This document shows, piece after piece, positions 3,310 to 20,356 of a stretch of 64,000 nucleotides of DNA. Source of the stretch: Kastovskya adunca ATA6-11-RM4 (GTDB taxonomy: Bacteria > Cyanobacteriota > Cyanobacteriia > Cyanobacteriales > Coleofasciculaceae); NCBI GenBank assembly GCA_019359445.1, contig JAHHHJ010000002.1, positions 124,001 to 188,000 of the forward strand. Direction: 5' to 3'. Position numbers and translations under genes: made by a program. The notes under the pieces were generated by a model. The model did no database searches. It saw nothing but the letters and a program-made list of their open reading frames with translations, and was not told where the DNA came from. Position 1 is the first letter of the stretch, and each line of letters starts with the position of its first letter.

Positions 3310-4335
3310 ATGACATTATTAACATCTATCGACCTTTTTGCTGGTGCAGGGGGACTTAGCTGCGGACTTACGGCAGAGGGATTCCAGGTGAATGCTGCGG
3401 TAGAGATTGATCCGGTATCAGCGAAAAGTTATAGCCTCAACCATCAAAGTACGAATGTCATAGTCGATGATATTCGGCGCGTAACTGATTCTCAGCTGCT
3501 TAAGCAAGCAGGACTTGCTCCTGGTGAATTGGACTTGTTAACTGGTTGCCCACCATGTCAGGCTTTTTCCACACTTCGTACGCGGCGTCGGAAGCAACAG
3601 TTAAACGATCCGAGCAAAGAACTCATTATTGAGATGCTACGACTGGTAAGATCGATACGCCCTCGCGCAGTCATCGTAGAAAATGTTCCTGGTTTAGCAG
3701 ATGATCAGCACTTTACTAACTTCCGACTTGGTTTGAAAAAAGCAGGGTATCAATCTACATATGCAGTTCTCAATGCATCTGACTTTGGTGTACCACAGCG
3801 GCGTAAGCGGTTAATCCTTGTTGCATTGAAGGGGAGCGAAATTCCCTCAAGTTGGTCAAGCTATCACTGCGAACGTAGGACTGTTAGAGACGCTATCGGT
3901 CATCTTGCACCAGCGGGAATTAGTGGAGATATACTTCACGACATTCCTGAAAAGCGAACACCAGCTATGATGACGAGAATCAAAGCGACACCTAAAAATG
4001 GTGGTAGTCGCCTTGATATCTCACCCGAATTACAATGCGCCTGCCATACACGCATTGACGGGTTTAAGGATGTTTATGGTCGAATGGCATGGGATGATGT
4101 CTCACCGACTATTACTAGTGGGTGTAATAATCCGTCCAGGGGTCGGTTTCTTCATCCCGAAGAGAATAGAGCTATAACACTTCGAGAAGCTGCACTGTTA
4201 CAGACATTTCCCCTAGCCTATCAGTTCTGCCTTGATCGAGGTAAAGAGCATGTTGCATCCCAAATTGGGAATGCTTTCCCCCCAGATATGATTAGACCAA
4301 TTGCAAGAATCATCAGCCGTGAGTTGTCAGGATGA
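3310..4335 (+). CDS. DNA (cytosine-5)-methyltransferase, Dcm/C5 family
   Basis: A 341 aa enzyme that would transfer a methyl group from S-adenosylmethionine to C5 of cytosine within a specific DNA sequence. The family motifs are in order: motif I DLFAGAGGLSCG (residues 8-19), motif IV GCPPCQAFS with catalytic Cys83, motif VI ENVP (124-127), motif VIII QRRKR (163-167), a target-recognition region at about 195-275, and motifs IX-X with RAITLREAALLQTFP and IGNAFPP near the C-terminus. The length is at the lower normal end and no motif is missing. The stop overlaps the start of the next gene in ATGA, so the two are probably translationally coupled. No restriction endonuclease of a known type is adjacent, so the downstream ATPase-TOPRIM protein may be its partner. 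The absence of HIP1 suggests recent acquisition. The recognition site cannot be read from sequence. Confidence 0.95.
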   Translation: MTLLTSIDLFAGAGGLSCGLTAEGFQVNAAVEIDPVSAKSYSLNHQSTNVIVDDIRRVTDSQLLKQAGLAPGELDLLTGCPPCQAFSTLRTRRRKQQLNDPSKELIIEMLRLVRSIRPRAVIVENVPGLADDQHFTNFRLGLKKAGYQSTYAVLNASDFGVPQRRKRLILVALKGSEIPSSWSSYHCERRTVRDAIGHLAPAGISGDILHDIPEKRTPAMMTRIKATPKNGGSRLDISPELQCACHTRIDGFKDVYGRMAWDDVSPTITSGCNNPSRGRFLHPEENRAITLREAALLQTFPLAYQFCLDRGKEHVASQIGNAFPPDMIRPIARIISRELSG

Positions 4336-6065
4336 GTAAGAAAAAACCGGTAGATGATCTCCAAAAGAGTGTTAGGGCACTTGAAAGTAAAACCTCCTAT
4401 ATTTGCAGCCTTCGCTTCCCCAACTATCGGAATCTTCGGTGTGACAGCGAGCTACCATTTGACTTTCCAATCACAGTTCTGCTTGGTCGTAATGGGACGA
4501 ACAAGAGTTCCATTCTTCATGCTCTGTACGGTAGCCCAAGCGGTCAAACTATTGCAGATTTCTGGTTTGAGACAGAGCTTGATGCAATTCCCTCGGAACG
4601 TAATGGACTTAAACAGAGCGTTGTTCACCGATATCGTAAAGATAATGGCGATATTGTTGAGTGTATTAAGGCTCGCGCTCCACGCGGACCTAAAGACCCC
4701 GATTATTGGGAGGCTGTTAAACAGAGCCAAGTATATGGGTTCTCTGATAGTGGCACTCGAATTAGTCCTATTAAAATCAAAGTTACACACTTGGACTTCC
4801 GGGGCGAGTTGCCCGCTTTTGATAAATACTTCTACTTTCCTGATCCAAAGCATCTTGCGGTTCTTGTCCGTTCTGCAAAAGGCCGAGGAAAGCTACGCAG
4901 AGAGTATCGCAAGCAGGACTATCTTAGACAACGTTCAAGACGGTTAAGAAAGGCAATTGAGGAGGAGGGTATTGCACTAACTACCGAAGAGTTGGAAGTC
5001 CTGAAATACATTCTTGAGCGGGATTACGTTAGTGGAAGGGTGCTGAAACACTCACTATTTCACGGACATGAAGGCTGGACAATACTGTTCGAGACAAATC
5101 AGTTTAATGGGTATTCGGACGCATTTGCTGGCAGTGGTGAGTCAGCTGCTGCGCTGCTTGTACATAATATATTGCAGGCTCCAGAAAGATCTTTGATGCT
5201 CCTAGATGAGCCTGAAACGTCGCTTCATCCCCGTGCCCAACAACGAATGCTAGAATTTATCGCACATCAGGCTGTGCGGAAGTCCCTTCAGGTTGTGATG
5301 GCAACACATTCTATCTATCTCGCAAAAAATCTCCCTCAGAAAGCAATCCGAGTACTAGTTCGTGAACCAGATGGCTCTGTGACAGTGAGAACCGATCTCT
5401 CAGCAGACGAGGCATTACATGAAATTGGTACTCTCCCACCTGGAAAAACTATTCTGGTTGAAGATGAGCGAGCAAAACACATCGTTGTTTCAGCTTTAAA
5501 GCTAGCGTCGAGTCATGCTTTAAGTGAGTTTAAGGTTTTGGTTCGAGAAGGCGGAACTTCACGCATATATCGTGATATTCAAAGCTATGCAAACTGCGAG
5601 AGGAAAGACGTATTTGTTATTTTTGATGGAGACCATGAACCTAAAAAGCCTATTCCTAAAGAGGGGGAACTTCCCCAAGGAGAAAGTGACCTAAAGAAAC
5701 TGATTCAGGAGCTTACACGGGGAAATAATCAAAAAGGTCCTGATCTTGATTTGGTAAATGCAGACGAGATGACACGCTACATTCGTTTCTTAAGAGAATC
5801 TGTCTATTTTTTACCTGAGCTAACTCCTGAGACCCTCGTTTGGGAAGAAGATGCAGCCAAAGAACTTTTAGGTAAAGAGCTACCTGACGAAGTTTCACAA
5901 GAGCAGAACCTCAAACAGCGCCTTCACCTACTTGCAGAGGAGATTCCCGGTTTTGATGCTGATACAGTTTTCAAGAGTCTCTTGGCTCAACTACTGAGAG
6001 GCGAAAGCCAGCGTAAAAAAGATCTTATAGAAGTTATTCGGCAGATTCGATCTGCCACCGTTTAA
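4332..6065 (+). CDS. OLD-like AAA/ABC ATPase with C-terminal TOPRIM-like domain
   Basis: A 577 aa protein. The N-terminal part is an SMC/ABC-like ATPase: LRFPNYRNL strand, P-loop GRNGTNKSS at 52-60, Walker B LMLLDEPETSLHP with D292-E293, and switch histidine MATHS. The C-terminal part (about 370-475) looks like a TOPRIM nuclease domain: ILVEDERAKHIV with E377, then VIFDGDHE with D432 and D434. This order is that of OLD (overcoming lysogenization defect) family nucleases, many of which serve in phage defence. The P-loop is odd, with asparagine where the glycine before the lysine should be. ATGA overlap with the methyltransferase indicates coupling. Inference: the methylase marks self DNA and this protein acts as the ATP-dependent effector. 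Alternatively, it may be an independent OLD gene. Confidence 0.85.
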   Translation: MSKKKPVDDLQKSVRALESKTSYICSLRFPNYRNLRCDSELPFDFPITVLLGRNGTNKSSILHALYGSPSGQTIADFWFETELDAIPSERNGLKQSVVHRYRKDNGDIVECIKARAPRGPKDPDYWEAVKQSQVYGFSDSGTRISPIKIKVTHLDFRGELPAFDKYFYFPDPKHLAVLVRSAKGRGKLRREYRKQDYLRQRSRRLRKAIEEEGIALTTEELEVLKYILERDYVSGRVLKHSLFHGHEGWTILFETNQFNGYSDAFAGSGESAAALLVHNILQAPERSLMLLDEPETSLHPRAQQRMLEFIAHQAVRKSLQVVMATHSIYLAKNLPQKAIRVLVREPDGSVTVRTDLSADEALHEIGTLPPGKTILVEDERAKHIVVSALKLASSHALSEFKVLVREGGTSRIYRDIQSYANCERKDVFVIFDGDHEPKKPIPKEGELPQGESDLKKLIQELTRGNNQKGPDLDLVNADEMTRYIRFLRESVYFLPELTPETLVWEEDAAKELLGKELPDEVSQEQNLKQRLHLLAEEIPGFDADTVFKSLLAQLLRGESQRKKDLIEVIRQIRSATV

Positions 6066-15635: not shown

Positions 15636-15782
15636 AGTTTGAGGAATTTAGCCTTGACTACAAACCAATAATATTTACATGCCCTAGTTCAGGGAAGCAT
15701 GGCTAATCACCAGTGCCGATCATTAACTTCACCCTTCACCCTTCACCCTTTATACTTTTTTCCTAGCCCCTAATACAGGCGT

Positions 15783-17111
15783 ATGGTTATGCAAAAAATC
15801 CCCAAACGAATCTCCACGGCTCTGATTAATGCCTTGAGTGCGGGAGTTGTTCCGCGAGTGGGATTAGAACAGATTGCCGTTGGGCGAGAAAAGGAAACTT
15901 CGGCTTTAGCCCAAGATTTAGAGAATATTGCTGAGGGTGGTGCCGCTTTTCGGTTCATCGTTGGGCGTTTTGGCTCAGGAAAAAGCTTTATGCTGCAATT
16001 CCTTCGCAATCTGGCGATGGAACAAGGATTTGTGGTGGCGGATGCGGATTTGTCTCCGGAACGGCGGTTAGCAGGTAGCAGCAGTCAAGGCGTAGCAACC
16101 TATCGAGAGTTGATGGGTAATATTGCTACCAAAACCAATCCTAATGGGGGAGCGATCGCGCTAATTTTAGAAAAATGGTTAAGCGGTATCCTCAGCCAAG
16201 TTGCCCAAGAAACAGGCAAACGCCTCGGTGAGGATGATTTTGACGATCAAGTTGAGGTAAAAATCCGCGCTGTTGTGGATGATTTGGAAAACTTAGTCCA
16301 CGGCTTTGACTTTGGTAGCGTGATCATTGCCTACTGGCGAGGCTACCGTGAAGATAACCCCGACAAGCAAGATGCCGCCCTGCGTTGGCTGCGGGGAGAA
16401 TTTAATACTAAAACTGAAGCCAAGTCTGCCCTAGGCGTGCGCGTCATTATTGACGACGATACCTGGTACGACTACATCAAACTCTTTGCCAAGTTTGTTT
16501 CTGATATTGGCTACAAAGGGCTGATTGTTTTGCTCGATGAGGCGGTGCATTTGTACAAAATTACCCACACAGCTTCCCGCCACAGCAACTACGACAAGCT
16601 GCTAGCGATGTTCAACGACACCATGCAGGGTAAAGCCGAAAACCTAGGAATAGTCGTCGGGGGAACGCCAGAATTTCTCGAAGATTCCCGCCGGGGACTG
16701 CATAGCGAAGAAGCTTGGCGATCGCGACTGGCAAAAAGCCGTTTTCTCAAAGATGACTTTCAGGATACCTCCGCCCCCGTTATTGGGCTAGAACCCCTAA
16801 CATCAAAAGACATCTCTCAACTTTTGCAGCGGTTAGCCGAGGTTCATGGGATGCACTACAGCTACAAAAAGGTGATCTCAAGCCGTGAATTAGAGGAATT
16901 TAAGCAAGAAATCATGAATCGCTTAGGGGCAGAAAAACTCTTAACTCCCCGCGAAGTGGTTCGCGACTTAATCAGCGTTTTGAATATTTTGCACCAAAAT
17001 CCCCAAGTTACCTTTAAGCAAATCATTAATGGCGATCGCGTTTTGCCAACGGCAAATGGCAAGAAACAGGACGGCGATAAAACGGGTAACTTTGCAGAAT
17101 TTACGTTATAA
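15783..17111 (+). CDS. P-loop ATPase of the BREX BrxD / DUF2791 type
   Basis: A 442 aa protein with an AAA+-like NTPase core: an N-terminal region containing RISTALINALSAGVVPRVGL, Walker A GRFGSGKS at 61-68, Walker B GLIVLLDEAVHL with Asp252-Glu253, and a likely sensor segment LGIVVGGTPEFLEDSRRGLH. This pattern is that of the DUF2791 ATPases, which occur as BrxD in type 2 BREX phage-defence systems and in Ter-associated gene clusters beside an Lhr-like helicase. The helicase is present two genes downstream, but PglX, PglZ, PglW and PglY are not in the window. It contains HIP1 sites, so it is well adapted to the host. ATG 15783 and ATG 15789 are both possible. It probably forms one operon with the next two genes. 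Confidence 0.85.
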   Translation: MVMQKIPKRISTALINALSAGVVPRVGLEQIAVGREKETSALAQDLENIAEGGAAFRFIVGRFGSGKSFMLQFLRNLAMEQGFVVADADLSPERRLAGSSSQGVATYRELMGNIATKTNPNGGAIALILEKWLSGILSQVAQETGKRLGEDDFDDQVEVKIRAVVDDLENLVHGFDFGSVIIAYWRGYREDNPDKQDAALRWLRGEFNTKTEAKSALGVRVIIDDDTWYDYIKLFAKFVSDIGYKGLIVLLDEAVHLYKITHTASRHSNYDKLLAMFNDTMQGKAENLGIVVGGTPEFLEDSRRGLHSEEAWRSRLAKSRFLKDDFQDTSAPVIGLEPLTSKDISQLLQRLAEVHGMHYSYKKVISSRELEEFKQEIMNRLGAEKLLTPREVVRDLISVLNILHQNPQVTFKQIINGDRVLPTANGKKQDGDKTGNFAEFTL

Positions 17112-17185
17112 GTCCAATATTCCTTTAATTATCACCTTGGTAAAGAATTGAAATAACATCTAAGTCTGAGCTAACTTTCTTGACT

Positions 17186-17902
17186 ATGGGACATAAGAAA
17201 TCTCTCAACAAAAAGCGCCTGACTCGGAAACAAGTTCAAGAGTTAATTGAGGCTGAAGGAAAACTGCATGAGGAGTTTACAAAATTCTTTGAGGAAACTT
17301 ACTCAACTGGGTATAAAAACCAACCTTTAGTTTATGAATTACCTAATGATAGATTCCTATACGTTTTCGATCCAAAAGAGATTGGAAGTCCTGGTAAAGG
17401 TGACATTTATCCAAAAGACTACTTTCTACGGCGCGTCCAATGGACACAAAGGGTAAGAGATGATTCTGCAAATAATCGTGGTAGTTCTATCCGCCATTGG
17501 AGATACTACTCAAAAAATAAAGCAGAACTGATTAGCAAAATTGAGCAGCTAATTGACGAACTTGCAGAAAAATTAGCAATTCCCCGCCCTCAACTTGATT
17601 TTTCCTACGCGAGCCTAGATATTGTCTCCAGCAAAGCTGAAGATTACGAACTCGATGAAGTGCAGGCTGAACTCTATGATAATTTGGTGGCTTATGTCGG
17701 CGAGGTTTTAAAACGTAGAGTAAACGGGCAATGGGCTATTGAAACTTTACATGGGGATGAAAAATACCCATATATTAGTGCAGATACTAAAGGAGTTCTG
17801 ATGCCGATCAATGTGGTTTGGACAGAACTAAATGGTCTTGAACCGATGAATTTGCGAAAAGAAACTGCCAACGAGGTGCGGCGTTTTTCCTTGCGGAGAT
17901 AA
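17186..17902 (+). CDS. Uncharacterised protein between BrxD-like ATPase and helicase
   Basis: A 238 aa soluble protein that I do not recognise. The N-terminus is very basic (KKSLNKKRLTRKQ), followed by a helix rich in acidic residues (EAEGKLHEEFTKFFEETY), an aromatic beta-looking part with YELPNDRFLYVFDP and RRVQWTQRV, and a C-terminal half containing LVAYVGEVLKRRVNGQWAIE. That last pattern is reminiscent of small immunity-like or DUF3806-like domains, but I cannot assign it. There is no signal peptide or membrane segment. ATG 17186 is chosen over the in-frame TTG at 17180. It lies 74 bases after the ATPase and 72 before the helicase, so it is probably cotranscribed with both. Confidence 0.7.
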   Translation: MGHKKSLNKKRLTRKQVQELIEAEGKLHEEFTKFFEETYSTGYKNQPLVYELPNDRFLYVFDPKEIGSPGKGDIYPKDYFLRRVQWTQRVRDDSANNRGSSIRHWRYYSKNKAELISKIEQLIDELAEKLAIPRPQLDFSYASLDIVSSKAEDYELDEVQAELYDNLVAYVGEVLKRRVNGQWAIETLHGDEKYPYISADTKGVLMPINVVWTELNGLEPMNLRKETANEVRRFSLRR

Positions 17903-17974
17903 TTTTGATTTAAGGCGCGATCGCGTTTACTTCTTCCCAGACGCTACAATGCTTGGGGACTATGAAATTTCCCC

Positions 17975-20356
17975 ATGAGCGAACAGTCTTTTAAGAAACT
18001 TGCCCCCTTCCTCCAGGACTACATCTACAAACACCGCTGGAGCGAACTGCGGCAAGTACAACAACAAGCCTGTCAGGTAATCTTTGAGACAGATGCTCAC
18101 TTATTGCTGGCGGCGGGTACGGCGGCGGGAAAAACAGAAGCAGCGTTTCTCCCCGTTCTCACCCTCCTGCATCAGCAGCCTTCTAAAAGTATTGGCGTCT
18201 TATATATTGGCCCCCTCAAAGCATTAATTAATGACCAATTCGACCGCTTGGATGGCTTATTAAAAGCGGCGGATATTCCCGTTTGTCCCTGGCATGGCGA
18301 TATTCCCCAAAGTTACAAAGCAAGGCTGCTAAAAGAACCAAAGGGGGTGTTGCAAATTACGCCGGAATCCTTAGAAAGCTTGTTAATTAATAAGCACAGC
18401 GAACTAGAACGGCTGTTTGGGGATTTGCGATTCGTCATTATTGATGAAATCCATGCCTTTATGGGTTCAGAACGAGGTGGGCAGATTCTTTGTCAGTTAG
18501 CACGACTATCGCCAGTAATGCAGACTTCCCCACGTCGCATTGGCTTATCGGCAACCTTGGGAGATTACTCCCAGGCGGAGGAGTGGCTGCGTTCTGGTAC
18601 AGATAGAGCGGTAGTGACGCCAGAAATTGCCGGGGGCGATCGCCAAGTTCGTCTGGCGCTAGAGCATTTTGAGATTCCCCGTGAAGTGGAACCTCCCCCC
18701 CAACCCCCGGATAACAAAAAGCGCAAGCAACATCTGGCTTCCCCCTTTTTAAGGGGGACAGGAGGGGGATCTGTAAGGGGGGAGAATTTAGGCAAAGTCC
18801 CCCGCAATATTCAAAGCGCAGCAACATCTAGCTTCCCCCTTTTTAAGGGGGACGGGAGGGGGATCTCCGAGGGAGATTTAGGGGGTTCTCAAGATTTGAA
18901 AACACGCCCTAGAAGTCCCTATTACCAATACATTTTCGATTGCAGCAAAGCGAGAAAGTGCCTGATTTTTGCCAACAGTCGCAGCCAGACAGAATCAGTG
19001 ATTGCCAACCTACGGCAAATTGCGGCGGCGGAGGGGATGCCGGATATTTACCACGTCCATCACGGTAGCATTGCGCCTCGCTTGCGGGAGGCGGCGGAGG
19101 CGGCGATGCGAAATTCAACCACTCCTGCGGTGACAGCCGCAACGCTGACGCTGGAATTGGGAATTGATATTGGGCAGTTAGAGCGGGTAATTCAGCTCAA
19201 TGCTCCCTTATCAGTGGCGAGTTTTTTGCAGCGACTGGGGAGAACGGGAAGGCGGGGAGAGCCTGCGGATATGCGCTTTGTCTGTACAGAAGAGGAGGGA
19301 AACGCCGAGAAGCCTTTACCAGAGCAACTTCCTTGGCAACTGCTACAGGCGATCGCGATTATCCAACTCTACATCGAAGAGCGCTGGATTGAACCCATCC
19401 CAGCAGTACAGTACCCCTTCAGCCTGCTGTACCACCAGACGATGAGCATTCTAACCGCTAAGGGCGAACTTTCTCCCGCCGCCTTAGCCGAGCAAGTCCT
19501 CACCCTGCCAAGCTTTGCCGCCATCTTCCCAGATGATTTTCGGCAACTGCTACATCACCTCATCGCCATCGATCATCTACAACCCACCGCTAACGGCAGC
19601 TTAATTATCGGTTTAGCGGGAGAAAAAGTCGTTAATCGCTTTCAGTTTTACGCCGTCTTTCAAGACAACCCCGAATACTCCGTTCGTGATGACACGATGG
19701 AAATTGGCAGCATCGTTATGCCCTTACCTGCCGAAAATCGCTTTGCTCTAGCAGGTAGAACTTGGGAAGTCATCGACATCGATACCAAAGCCAGGATTGT
19801 CTACGTCAAGCAAGTAGAAGGCATTGCCCGTATTTCTTGGCGGGGAGGTAGCGGCACCATTCACGCCAAAGTGCTGCAACGAATGCGTCAAGTGTTGCTT
19901 GAAGATGTGCAGTATCCCTACTTACAACCCACCGCTCAATCTCGCCTGCAAGCCGCCCGTCACTTAGCTCAAAATGCAGAGTTAGAGTATAAAAACATCC
20001 TCCCTCTTAAGCACAATACTTACTGCATTTTTCCTTGGATGGGCACAGTAGCTTATCACACTTTAGAGCGGTATTTGAGCCTCTTTTGTCGAGAAACGTT
20101 GGAGATTAAAAACTTGAGAGGTTTAGCTCCCTACTTTCTCACGATTCGACTCGGAAAAGATAAACTATCACTACTTCATGAAGAACTTGCCTGTTTTGGC
20201 GATCGAGGAATTACCGAGGAAGATTTAGTTACCGCAGAGGATGTTTTGAATCAACAAAAATATGACCGCTTTATTCCTCCAACCTTGCTTAAAAAAGCAT
20301 TTGCTGTTGATTCCTTAAACGTTGAGGAGATGGAAAAAATTATTAACAACTGGTAG
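17975..20356 (+). CDS. DEAD/DEAH-box SF2 helicase, Lhr/BrxHI-like
   Basis: A 793 aa ATP-dependent helicase. Visible motifs: Walker A GTAAGKT ending at residue 54, DEIH at 157-160, SAT within GLSATLG near 192, a second RecA domain beginning near YQYIFDCSKARKCLIFANS, ATLTLELGIDIG, and motif VI Q419-R-L-G-R-T-G-R-R. A long C-terminal region (about 450-793) resembles the Lhr-type winged helix and beta-barrel part. Residues about 240-305 are encoded by a dispersed G/C-rich repeat (18689-18889) inserted in frame between the RecA lobes. It is 201 bases long and has no stop. Neighbours suggest a BREX-like or Ter-type defence or DNA-processing role with the ATPase at 15783. The order ATPase, unknown, helicase is complete, with no frameshift. 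Confidence 0.9.
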   Translation: MSEQSFKKLAPFLQDYIYKHRWSELRQVQQQACQVIFETDAHLLLAAGTAAGKTEAAFLPVLTLLHQQPSKSIGVLYIGPLKALINDQFDRLDGLLKAADIPVCPWHGDIPQSYKARLLKEPKGVLQITPESLESLLINKHSELERLFGDLRFVIIDEIHAFMGSERGGQILCQLARLSPVMQTSPRRIGLSATLGDYSQAEEWLRSGTDRAVVTPEIAGGDRQVRLALEHFEIPREVEPPPQPPDNKKRKQHLASPFLRGTGGGSVRGENLGKVPRNIQSAATSSFPLFKGDGRGISEGDLGGSQDLKTRPRSPYYQYIFDCSKARKCLIFANSRSQTESVIANLRQIAAAEGMPDIYHVHHGSIAPRLREAAEAAMRNSTTPAVTAATLTLELGIDIGQLERVIQLNAPLSVASFLQRLGRTGRRGEPADMRFVCTEEEGNAEKPLPEQLPWQLLQAIAIIQLYIEERWIEPIPAVQYPFSLLYHQTMSILTAKGELSPAALAEQVLTLPSFAAIFPDDFRQLLHHLIAIDHLQPTANGSLIIGLAGEKVVNRFQFYAVFQDNPEYSVRDDTMEIGSIVMPLPAENRFALAGRTWEVIDIDTKARIVYVKQVEGIARISWRGGSGTIHAKVLQRMRQVLLEDVQYPYLQPTAQSRLQAARHLAQNAELEYKNILPLKHNTYCIFPWMGTVAYHTLERYLSLFCRETLEIKNLRGLAPYFLTIRLGKDKLSLLHEELACFGDRGITEEDLVTAEDVLNQQKYDRFIPPTLLKKAFAVDSLNVEEMEKIINNW
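18689..18889 (+). repeat. Dispersed G/C-rich palindromic repeat inserted in frame in the helicase gene
   Basis: The stretch begins GAACCTCCC, ends GGGGGTTC, and holds two similar units, each with AGCAACATCT, GGCTTCCCCC or AGCTTCCCCC, TTTTTAAGGGGGAC and GGAGGGGGATCT. The same sequence, nearly identical, occurs between genes at 40586-40727. The length of 201 bases keeps the helicase frame and adds about 67 Pro/Gly/Arg-rich residues. It is a repeat captured as coding sequence. Confidence 0.85.

What the first reader, a model, noticed from the sequence alone, without database searches (positions are those of the whole stretch)
15783..20356. Orphan BREX-like or Ter-type trio: DUF2791 ATPase, unknown protein, Lhr-like helicase
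Known: DUF2791/BrxD ATPases and BrxHI/Lhr helicases occur together in type 2 BREX and in TerB-linked clusters. Here both are present without PglX, PglZ, PglW, PglY or TerB, and a 238 aa unknown protein sits between them. Either this is a minimal, separate system whose specificity factor is the unknown protein, or a BREX remnant that kept its helicase.
Basis: partly seen in the sequence, partly recalled or inferred. Interest (0 to 1): 0.68.

Follow-up and report, generated by a model that had tools for sequence, protein, structure and literature searches.

The report
Scattered Shango-like set with septal protein
These genes encode the motor and helicase of a known phage-defence machine (Shango), which in filamentous cyanobacteria seems to work with a cell-to-cell wall protein (SepT) encoded elsewhere in the genome, linking a defence-type machine to bacterial multicellularity.

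Summary
The gene calls are right, but this is neither orphan BREX nor a new trio. The ATPase and helicase are SngB and SngC of Shango (PADLOC E 1e-177 and 2e-250), well above their BrxD and BrxHI matches. The 238-aa protein between them looks like a passenger: it was found in none of 80 named SngB loci, and none of six other genomes carrying it or its remnants has SngB.

The "missing" TerB part exists in trans. On another contig the same genome encodes a TerB_C protein that is the apparent homologue of SepT, the Anabaena septal protein, in the block Tmemb_14–DUF815–SepT. In two genomes of its family, and in 17 of 17 Nostocaceae loci first compared, sngB follows sepT. In 217 Nostocaceae genomes SngB and SngC are both present or both missing in 210, though unlinked in 11 of 21 genomes examined; all 190 SngB genomes have SepT. 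A published SepT pull-down recovered the ATPase All2459 (SngB by synteny).

Most likely a dispersed, vertically inherited Shango variant: SepT holds SngB at the membrane or septum, and SngB loads SngC on DNA. Phage defence or septum-linked DNA handling remains open.

The parts
15783..17111 (+). sngB-type AAA+ ATPase (BrxC/BrxD family, 442 aa), putative orthologue of Anabaena All2459
   Evidence: PADLOC SngB E 1.2e-177 against BrxD 4.9e-58; PF10923 E 1.5e-167; Walker A and B residues among the invariant columns of a 14-row alignment; nests in a cyanobacterial SngB clade
17975..20356 (+). sngC-type SF2 helicase (Lhr/BrxHI-like, 793 aa)
   Evidence: PADLOC SngC E 1.9e-250, residues 1-791 on model 1-718 of 720; motifs DExH, SAT and QxxGRxGR in 42 of 42 rows and TAxGKT in 41 of 42 rows of this SngC type
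17186..17902 (+). 238-aa protein of unknown function, judged a passenger and not part of the system
   Evidence: no family over cut-off (best Pfam DUF3806 E 0.039); 9 of 291 genomes of the order have a match, five full-length with the window's own; found in 0 of 80 named SngB loci; 0 of 6 other carriers of a copy or remnant have SngB
18689..18898 (+). 70 codons inserted in frame in sngC (residues 239-308), holding two copies of a 54-nt repeat
   Evidence: absent from over 80% of 41 other SngC rows; repeat copies 18726-18779 and 18820-18873, 91% identical

Best explanation
The window carries two of three parts of a dispersed, chromosomal Shango variant. SngB (AAA+ ATPase) and SngC (helicase) are here; the TerB_C-bearing third part, which stands in for SngA, is the SepT homologue on contig C14 of the same genome. 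[quoted passage not shown] Its C-terminal TerB_C domain, predicted to be a winged helix, holds SngB. SngB, taken to be an ORC/Cdc6-like ATPase without a DNA-binding domain of its own (as published for BrxD), loads or switches SngC, which moves on and unwinds DNA arriving at or lying against the membrane. Shown here: families, intact motifs, linkage of SepT and SngB in relatives, co-retention of SngB with SngC, SngB found only with SepT in one family, homology of the SepT and SngA C-termini. Shown in print: SepT septal location and co-precipitation of All2459. Inferred: All2459 = SngB (synteny and domain description), TerB_C as the docking part, helicase loading, action on DNA. Biological job undecided: surveillance of incoming phage or foreign DNA at the membrane (about 0.5 of the weight) or handling of DNA at the growing septum (about 0.35). 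The 238-aa gene is a passenger.
For: (1) Family: SngB 589 and SngC 832 bits, against BrxD 195 and BrxHI 445. (2) Third part in trans: alignment A1 of the SngB neighbour hits C14:114660-115889 at 3.3e-74; TerB_C in its C-terminus 28.1 bits, cut-off 26.3; it lies in the block Tmemb_14-DUF815-c1. In two of five other SngB-bearing genomes of the window's family, DUF815, SepT and SngB stand in that order, SngB 80% and SepT 54-55% identical to the window genome's. (3) Linkage: in 71 of 80 named loci a match to the SepT-like family lies within 2.5 kb upstream of SngB; two of the 71 (L127, L147) are canonical SngA sharing the TerB_C end. (4) Co-retention: in 217 Nostocaceae genomes both 185, SngB only 5, SngC only 2, neither 25, at E 1e-100 and 1e-150 (Fisher p 1.2e-25, not corrected for kinship); all 190 SngB genomes have SepT at 1e-40. 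In a 194-genome phylum sample 24 of 25 strong SngB genomes have strong SngC and 24 of 24 the reverse, SngC being on another contig or 54 kb or more away in 11 of the 21 of this type. Of 63 named loci with 9 kb or more downstream, 43 hold no SngC. In genus g177 the genes lie over 1 Mb apart in G506 and G508, yet G509 (one contig) has neither and keeps the SepT block. (5) Ancestry: SepT and SngA C-termini align at hhalign probability 97, E 2e-11, against 0.1 for the coiled coil; the nearest SngB outside cyanobacteria (Paenibacillus, a Chloroflexi MAG, a Terriglobia MAG) stand in contiguous operons with TerB_N + TerB_C SngA. (6) In print: the SepT-GFP pull-down recovered All2459 (PMC10653889, section 7). 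(7) TerB_C model mean pLDDT 85.5; the VIA-align rows are mostly proteins known to me as winged-helix proteins, Z up to 6.7.
Against: No experiment ties SngC to SepT or SngB. SepT is kept in 21 of the 25 Nostocaceae genomes without SngB and SngC, so its septal role does not need them and the linkage could be partly historical. Five genomes have SngB without SngC; two of these (72% complete, or 1300 contigs) may be assembly gaps, the other three not obviously. Absence there means no match at the strict cut-offs named; decayed copies would count as absent. In the window's family SngB is patchy, 6 of 20 genomes, and in three of the five others no SepT lies in the 3 to 10 kb held upstream of SngB. 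Where SngC lies in those five was not searched. Mirror-tree correlation SngB-SngC (0.90) beats that with DUF815 (0.82) only modestly on the same 16 genomes. All2459 = SngB was not tested on its sequence. A 2025 paper models SepT coiled coils in the periplasm (PMC12096826, passages), which could put TerB_C out of SngB's reach. The winged-helix matches have Z below 8, and no Foldseek match reached E 0.001.
Confidence: 0.7

Rival explanations
1. Housekeeping domestication: SepT-SngB-SngC is no longer a defence system but a septum or nucleoid machine, clearing or processing DNA at the division septum of filaments.
For: Near-core and vertically inherited in Nostocaceae (190 of 217; SngB tree largely follows taxonomy); genes scattered, no other defence system recognised among the ten near neighbours scanned; SepT interacts with divisome and elongasome proteins and its mutants alter septal peptidoglycan and nanopores (PMC10653889).
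Against: SngB and SngC are both missing in 25 of 217 Nostocaceae genomes while SepT stays in 21 of them, so cell division does not need them; the closest kin are canonical Shango operons, two of them on plasmids.
Confidence: 0.35
2. Plain anti-phage Shango in which SepT simply took the place of SngA as membrane sensor.
For: SngB and SngC families as in Shango, which reduced plating 10-100 fold for many phages in P. aeruginosa (PMC10250203, passages); joint absence of the pair in a minority of Nostocaceae.
Against: No sign of mobility in the cyanobacterial copies; genes unlinked in 11 of 21 genomes; I found no anti-phage test of any cyanobacterial copy in the listings.
Confidence: 0.4
3. Remnant of BREX type 2 that kept BrxD and BrxHI.
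For: Weaker but real BrxD (E 4.9e-58) and BrxHI (E 1.2e-133) matches.
Against: SngB and SngC models score far higher; BrxD equivalog cut-off missed, 197 against 350; kin form SngABC operons; only one PF10923 gene in the genome.
Confidence: 0.03
4. Minimal three-gene system whose specificity factor is the 238-aa protein.
For: Same strand, gaps of about 70 bp.
Against: Found in 0 of 80 named SngB loci; none of six other genomes with the gene or its remnants has SngB; two of these copies are remnants.
Confidence: 0.03

Closest known systems
Shango (SngA-SngB-SngC; P. aeruginosa PA14 PA14_RS11735-11745, and E. coli)
   Same: SngB and SngC families, order SngB then SngC in the window, a TerB_C-bearing partner in the genome.
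   Different: No TerB_N/TerB SngA found; the partner is a membrane coiled-coil protein encoded on another contig; genes dispersed and vertically inherited; a passenger gene lies between sngB and sngC here.
SepT (All2460)-All2459-All2461 synteny block of Anabaena sp. PCC 7120
   Same: Same domain layout and length class (N-terminal TM pair, coiled coil, TerB-C; 426 aa) flanked by two P-loop NTPase genes, here DUF815 and SngB.
   Different: In the window genome SngB is no longer in the block but beside SngC; in the parts read the paper calls the ATPases P-loop NTPases and does not mention Shango, BREX or the helicase.
BREX type 2 BrxD-BrxHI dyad
   Same: ATPase-helicase pair; helicase-loader proposal (PMC12839542, passage of section 24).
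   Different: Sequence subfamily and partners differ; no methyltransferase of BREX type or PglZ found near.

Membership tests
Shango | SngB ATPase | tested here: met
   PDLC03959 E 1.2e-177, 589 bits, residues 3-440
Shango | SngC helicase | tested here: met
   PDLC03960 E 1.9e-250, model 1-718 of 720
Shango | SngA with TerB_N and TerB_C domains | tested here: not met
   PDLC03958 0 matches in the genome (the model rang in no control genome either, so weak alone); the only TerB_C match over cut-off in the genome is the SepT homologue, whereas 6 of 6 canonical SngA scanned carry TerB_N and TerB_C. TerB_N was not searched genome-wide
Shango | three genes in one operon, order A-B-C | tested here: not met
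   TerB_C gene on contig C14, sngB and sngC on C16 with a gene between
Shango | anti-phage activity | not testable with these tools
   needs phage assays
SepT synteny block | N-terminal membrane hairpin, coiled coil, TerB_C | tested here: met
   C14 protein: TerB_C 28.1 bits on its C-terminal part (a scan of the whole protein did not report it), sub-threshold coiled-coil match APG6_N, hydrophobic N-terminus read from the sequence; no TM or coiled-coil predictor was run
SepT synteny block | flanked by DUF815 ATPase and SngB-type ATPase | tested here: inconclusive
   DUF815 upstream present; DUF4230 instead of SngB downstream in the window genome, but SngB in two others of its family
BREX type 2 | BrxD equivalog | tested here: not met
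   NF033438 197 bits, cut-off 350
BREX type 2 | PglX, PglZ, PglW, BrxC present | tested here: inconclusive
   none in the printed rows for 25 of 64 window ORFs of 100 aa or more; single PF10923 gene genome-wide; PglX, PglZ and PglW not searched genome-wide

The most novel reading that the evidence does not exclude
A Shango-type ATPase-helicase has been wired to the cell-cell junction of multicellular cyanobacteria: SepT is an SngA derivative, and SepT-SngB-SngC patrols DNA at the septum, guarding against DNA or phage passage along the filament or clearing chromosomes from the closing septum.
Probability: 0.35. Interest if true: 0.87.

Novelty: new variant of a known kind. Interest (0 to 1): 0.7.

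Why it matters
Two literatures meet here: Shango, a phage-defence system whose mechanism I did not find described in what I read, and SepT, a septal protein of multicellular cyanobacteria with an unexplained TerB-C domain and ATPase partner. If the link holds, SepT mutants and pull-downs become a ready handle on Shango's mechanism, and the helicase becomes a predicted third partner that can be tested at once. It also shows that a defence-type machine can be split over the chromosome and still be kept or lost together, which operon-based defence finders would miss. None of the titles and abstract openings listed by the searches (openly licensed PMC only), nor the passages opened, joins SepT or All2459 to Shango or BREX; most of those papers were not opened.

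Tried and rejected
BREX remnant and 238-aa specificity factor: set aside as given under rivals. Structure of the 238-aa protein: single-sequence model, mean pLDDT 38, not interpretable, so no fold search was made with it. It has no relative in plasmids, phages or viral contigs by the searches made. Neighbours of SngC in 12 fetched loci where it is not beside SngB: no partner common to all; a calcineurin-like phosphoesterase recurs and is listed as a lead, not a finding. SngB and the SepT TerB_C profile have no PDB relative by sequence; SngC matches Lhr and other SF2 helicases. PADLOC matches of ten other genes near SngB were partial (HTH_VI, capH, SduA and the like) and are not counted as defence. 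A third Fisher test printed (SepT against SngB) used a wrong table; the counts in the report replace it. The tally first printed lost SngB in four loci through a one-base overlap rule; one search replaces it. The names given to f1 (Coleofasciculaceae) and f6 (Nostocaceae) are inferred: contigs of equal length to named records or identical SngB. Loci from unnamed and named sets overlap in part (for example L043 and L154).
Full report
What is there. Three same-strand ORFs stand at the stated coordinates. The first is a PF10923 ATPase and the third a DEAD/DEAH helicase with a weak Lhr winged-helix match. Against PADLOC they match SngB (589 bits) and SngC (832 bits), well above BrxD (195) and BrxHI (445).

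The protein in the middle. It matches no family over cut-off. Of 291 genomes of the order, 9 have any match: five full-length including the window's own, two remnants of 52 and 66 codons, two distant. None of the six other genomes with a full copy or remnant has SngB. It was found in none of 80 named SngB loci, of 4 to 21 kb each, nor in the 25 unnamed SngB loci fetched. I judge it a passenger. Its single-sequence model is too poor to use.

Where the Ter part is. In 19 of the 26 loci first compared (25 fetched loci with SngB-family genes plus the window) a protein of about 436 aa stands upstream of SngB, next to it in 18 and with one ORF between in L060; a DUF815 ATPase is in 16. All 17 loci of family f6 (Nostocaceae) among these that carry a strong SngB have it. 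The protein ends in TerB_C (E 3.3e-19 in L043). An alignment of 15 of the 19 (A1) finds one strong match in the window's genome, on contig C14 (3.3e-74). Its C-terminal part scores 28.1 bits against TerB_C, cut-off 26.3; scanned whole, TerB_C was not reported, while the genome search gave 27.3 bits. On C14 it sits after the Tmemb_14-like gene and DUF815, as in Nostocaceae, but DUF4230 takes the place of SngB. In two of five other SngB-bearing genomes of the family, SngB (80% identical) follows SepT; in the other three no SepT lies in the 3 to 10 kb held upstream. The simplest reading is that in the window genome sngB has left the block and now stands beside sngC.

The link to SepT. Anabaena SepT (All2460, 426 aa; table in PMC12421839, passage) has two N-terminal TM segments, coiled coils and TerB-C, and a conserved block with all2459 and all2461, both P-loop NTPases. 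SepT-GFP is at the periphery and septa and co-precipitates All2459; two sepT mutants have altered septal nanopores. Of PMC10653889 I read the abstract, the interaction section, the discussion and passages of the rest. The 436-aa family fits in layout, length, neighbours and phyletic range. That it is SepT and that All2459 is SngB are inferences from description and synteny; the Anabaena sequences were not at hand.

Co-occurrence. In a 194-genome sample of the phylum, strong SngB (E below 1e-150) occurs in 25 and strong SngC (E below 1e-200) in 24, all 24 shared; the exception is a 73%-complete genome with SngB at a contig edge. Four of the 25 (G016, G018, G038, G122) are only 38-42% identical to the window's SngB; for two of them a canonical SngA was checked. 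In the other 21, SngC lies within about 10 kb in 10 and on another contig or 54 kb or more away in 11, and all 21 have a SepT-like match (four of these matches run over one stop codon, although ORFs of 411-447 aa are open there). In 217 Nostocaceae genomes: both 185, SngB only 5, SngC only 2, neither 25 (counted from the printed lists, at E 1e-100 and 1e-150). SepT is in 212, in all 190 with SngB, and in 21 of the 25 with neither (E 1e-40). Genomes without both occur in at least seven genera (g10, g11, g37, g177, g183, g213, g221), counted by genus and not on a tree. In g177 the two genes are over 1 Mb apart in G506 and G508, yet G509 has neither and keeps the block up to SepT. SngB in two genomes of g219 scores lower and SngC is missing there.

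Ancestry. In a 66-row SngB tree the cyanobacterial rows group largely by cyanobacterial family; the nearest outsiders are Paenibacillus and two MAGs (Chloroflexi, Terriglobia), with weakly supported order among them. These have contiguous operons with TerB_N + TerB_C SngA. SepT and SngA C-termini align at probability 97, the coiled coil at 0.1. SepT's C-terminus may derive from, or share origin with, that SngA branch. Distances of SngB, SngC and SepT correlate (rho 0.89-0.90 on 16 shared genomes; DUF815 with the three 0.80-0.86), a modest excess. SngB-SngC reaches 0.95 in the 11 genomes where they are unlinked, which fits vertical descent.

How it may work. TerB_C of SepT is modelled well (pLDDT 85.5), and the VIA-align rows are mostly proteins I know as winged-helix proteins, ORC subunits among them, at Z 5-6.7, below the level that would be decisive. 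Published analysis classes BrxD with ORC/Cdc6 ATPases without added DNA-binding domains and suggests that it loads BrxHI (PMC12839542, passage). I therefore propose that SepT supplies the winged helix and the address, SngB the switch, and SngC the work on DNA. Shango itself is anti-phage (PMC10250203, passages). Nothing here decides between defence and a septal task.

Verdict. Not BREX, not a new trio, but a dispersed Shango variant with an unexpected partner. Several links are inference, above all SngC-SepT.

Noticed in passing
L078:3940-4764 (window genome C14) and L043, L056, L057, L131, L150, L163, L165, L167: A calcineurin-like phosphoesterase gene (PF00149 E 2.2e-12) lies within 8 kb of SngC in 9 of 46 loci with SngC (L043 and L154 being the same genome) against 1 of 87 loci without, and about 3.5 kb before the DUF815-SepT block in the window genome. 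Possible further partner; kinship not corrected.
   Followed up: partly
window 18689-18898: A 70-residue in-frame insert in SngC between the two helicase halves, made of two copies of a 54-nt repeat with a CCCCCTTTTTAAGGGGG core; the reading frame survives.
   Followed up: partly
window 3310-6065: C5 DNA methyltransferase gene overlapping an AAA/OLD-like ATPase gene (PADLOC MTase_II E 2e-85; HEC-04 E 8e-31): a possible separate two-gene defence pair about 10 kb upstream.
   Followed up: no
window about 15735-15765: Short tandem TTCACCC heptamers just upstream of sngB (read).
   Followed up: no
L043:10423-11814 and L057:10905-12302: A Ser/Thr protein kinase gene sits on the other strand between sngB and sngC in some Nostocaceae.
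   Followed up: partly
L145: Record titled as a Tatlockia (Legionellaceae) MAG is very close in SngB to Chlorogloea: probably a misbinned cyanobacterial contig.
   Followed up: no
L171 (G005): SepT-DUF815-Tmemb_14 block in a genome without SngB or strong SngC: SepT stands alone outside Nostocaceae too.
   Followed up: partly
literature: Two papers disagree on SepT topology: cytoplasmic C-terminus (PMC10653889) against periplasmic coiled coils in an AlphaFold 3 model with SepJ (PMC12096826); passages seen.
   Followed up: partly
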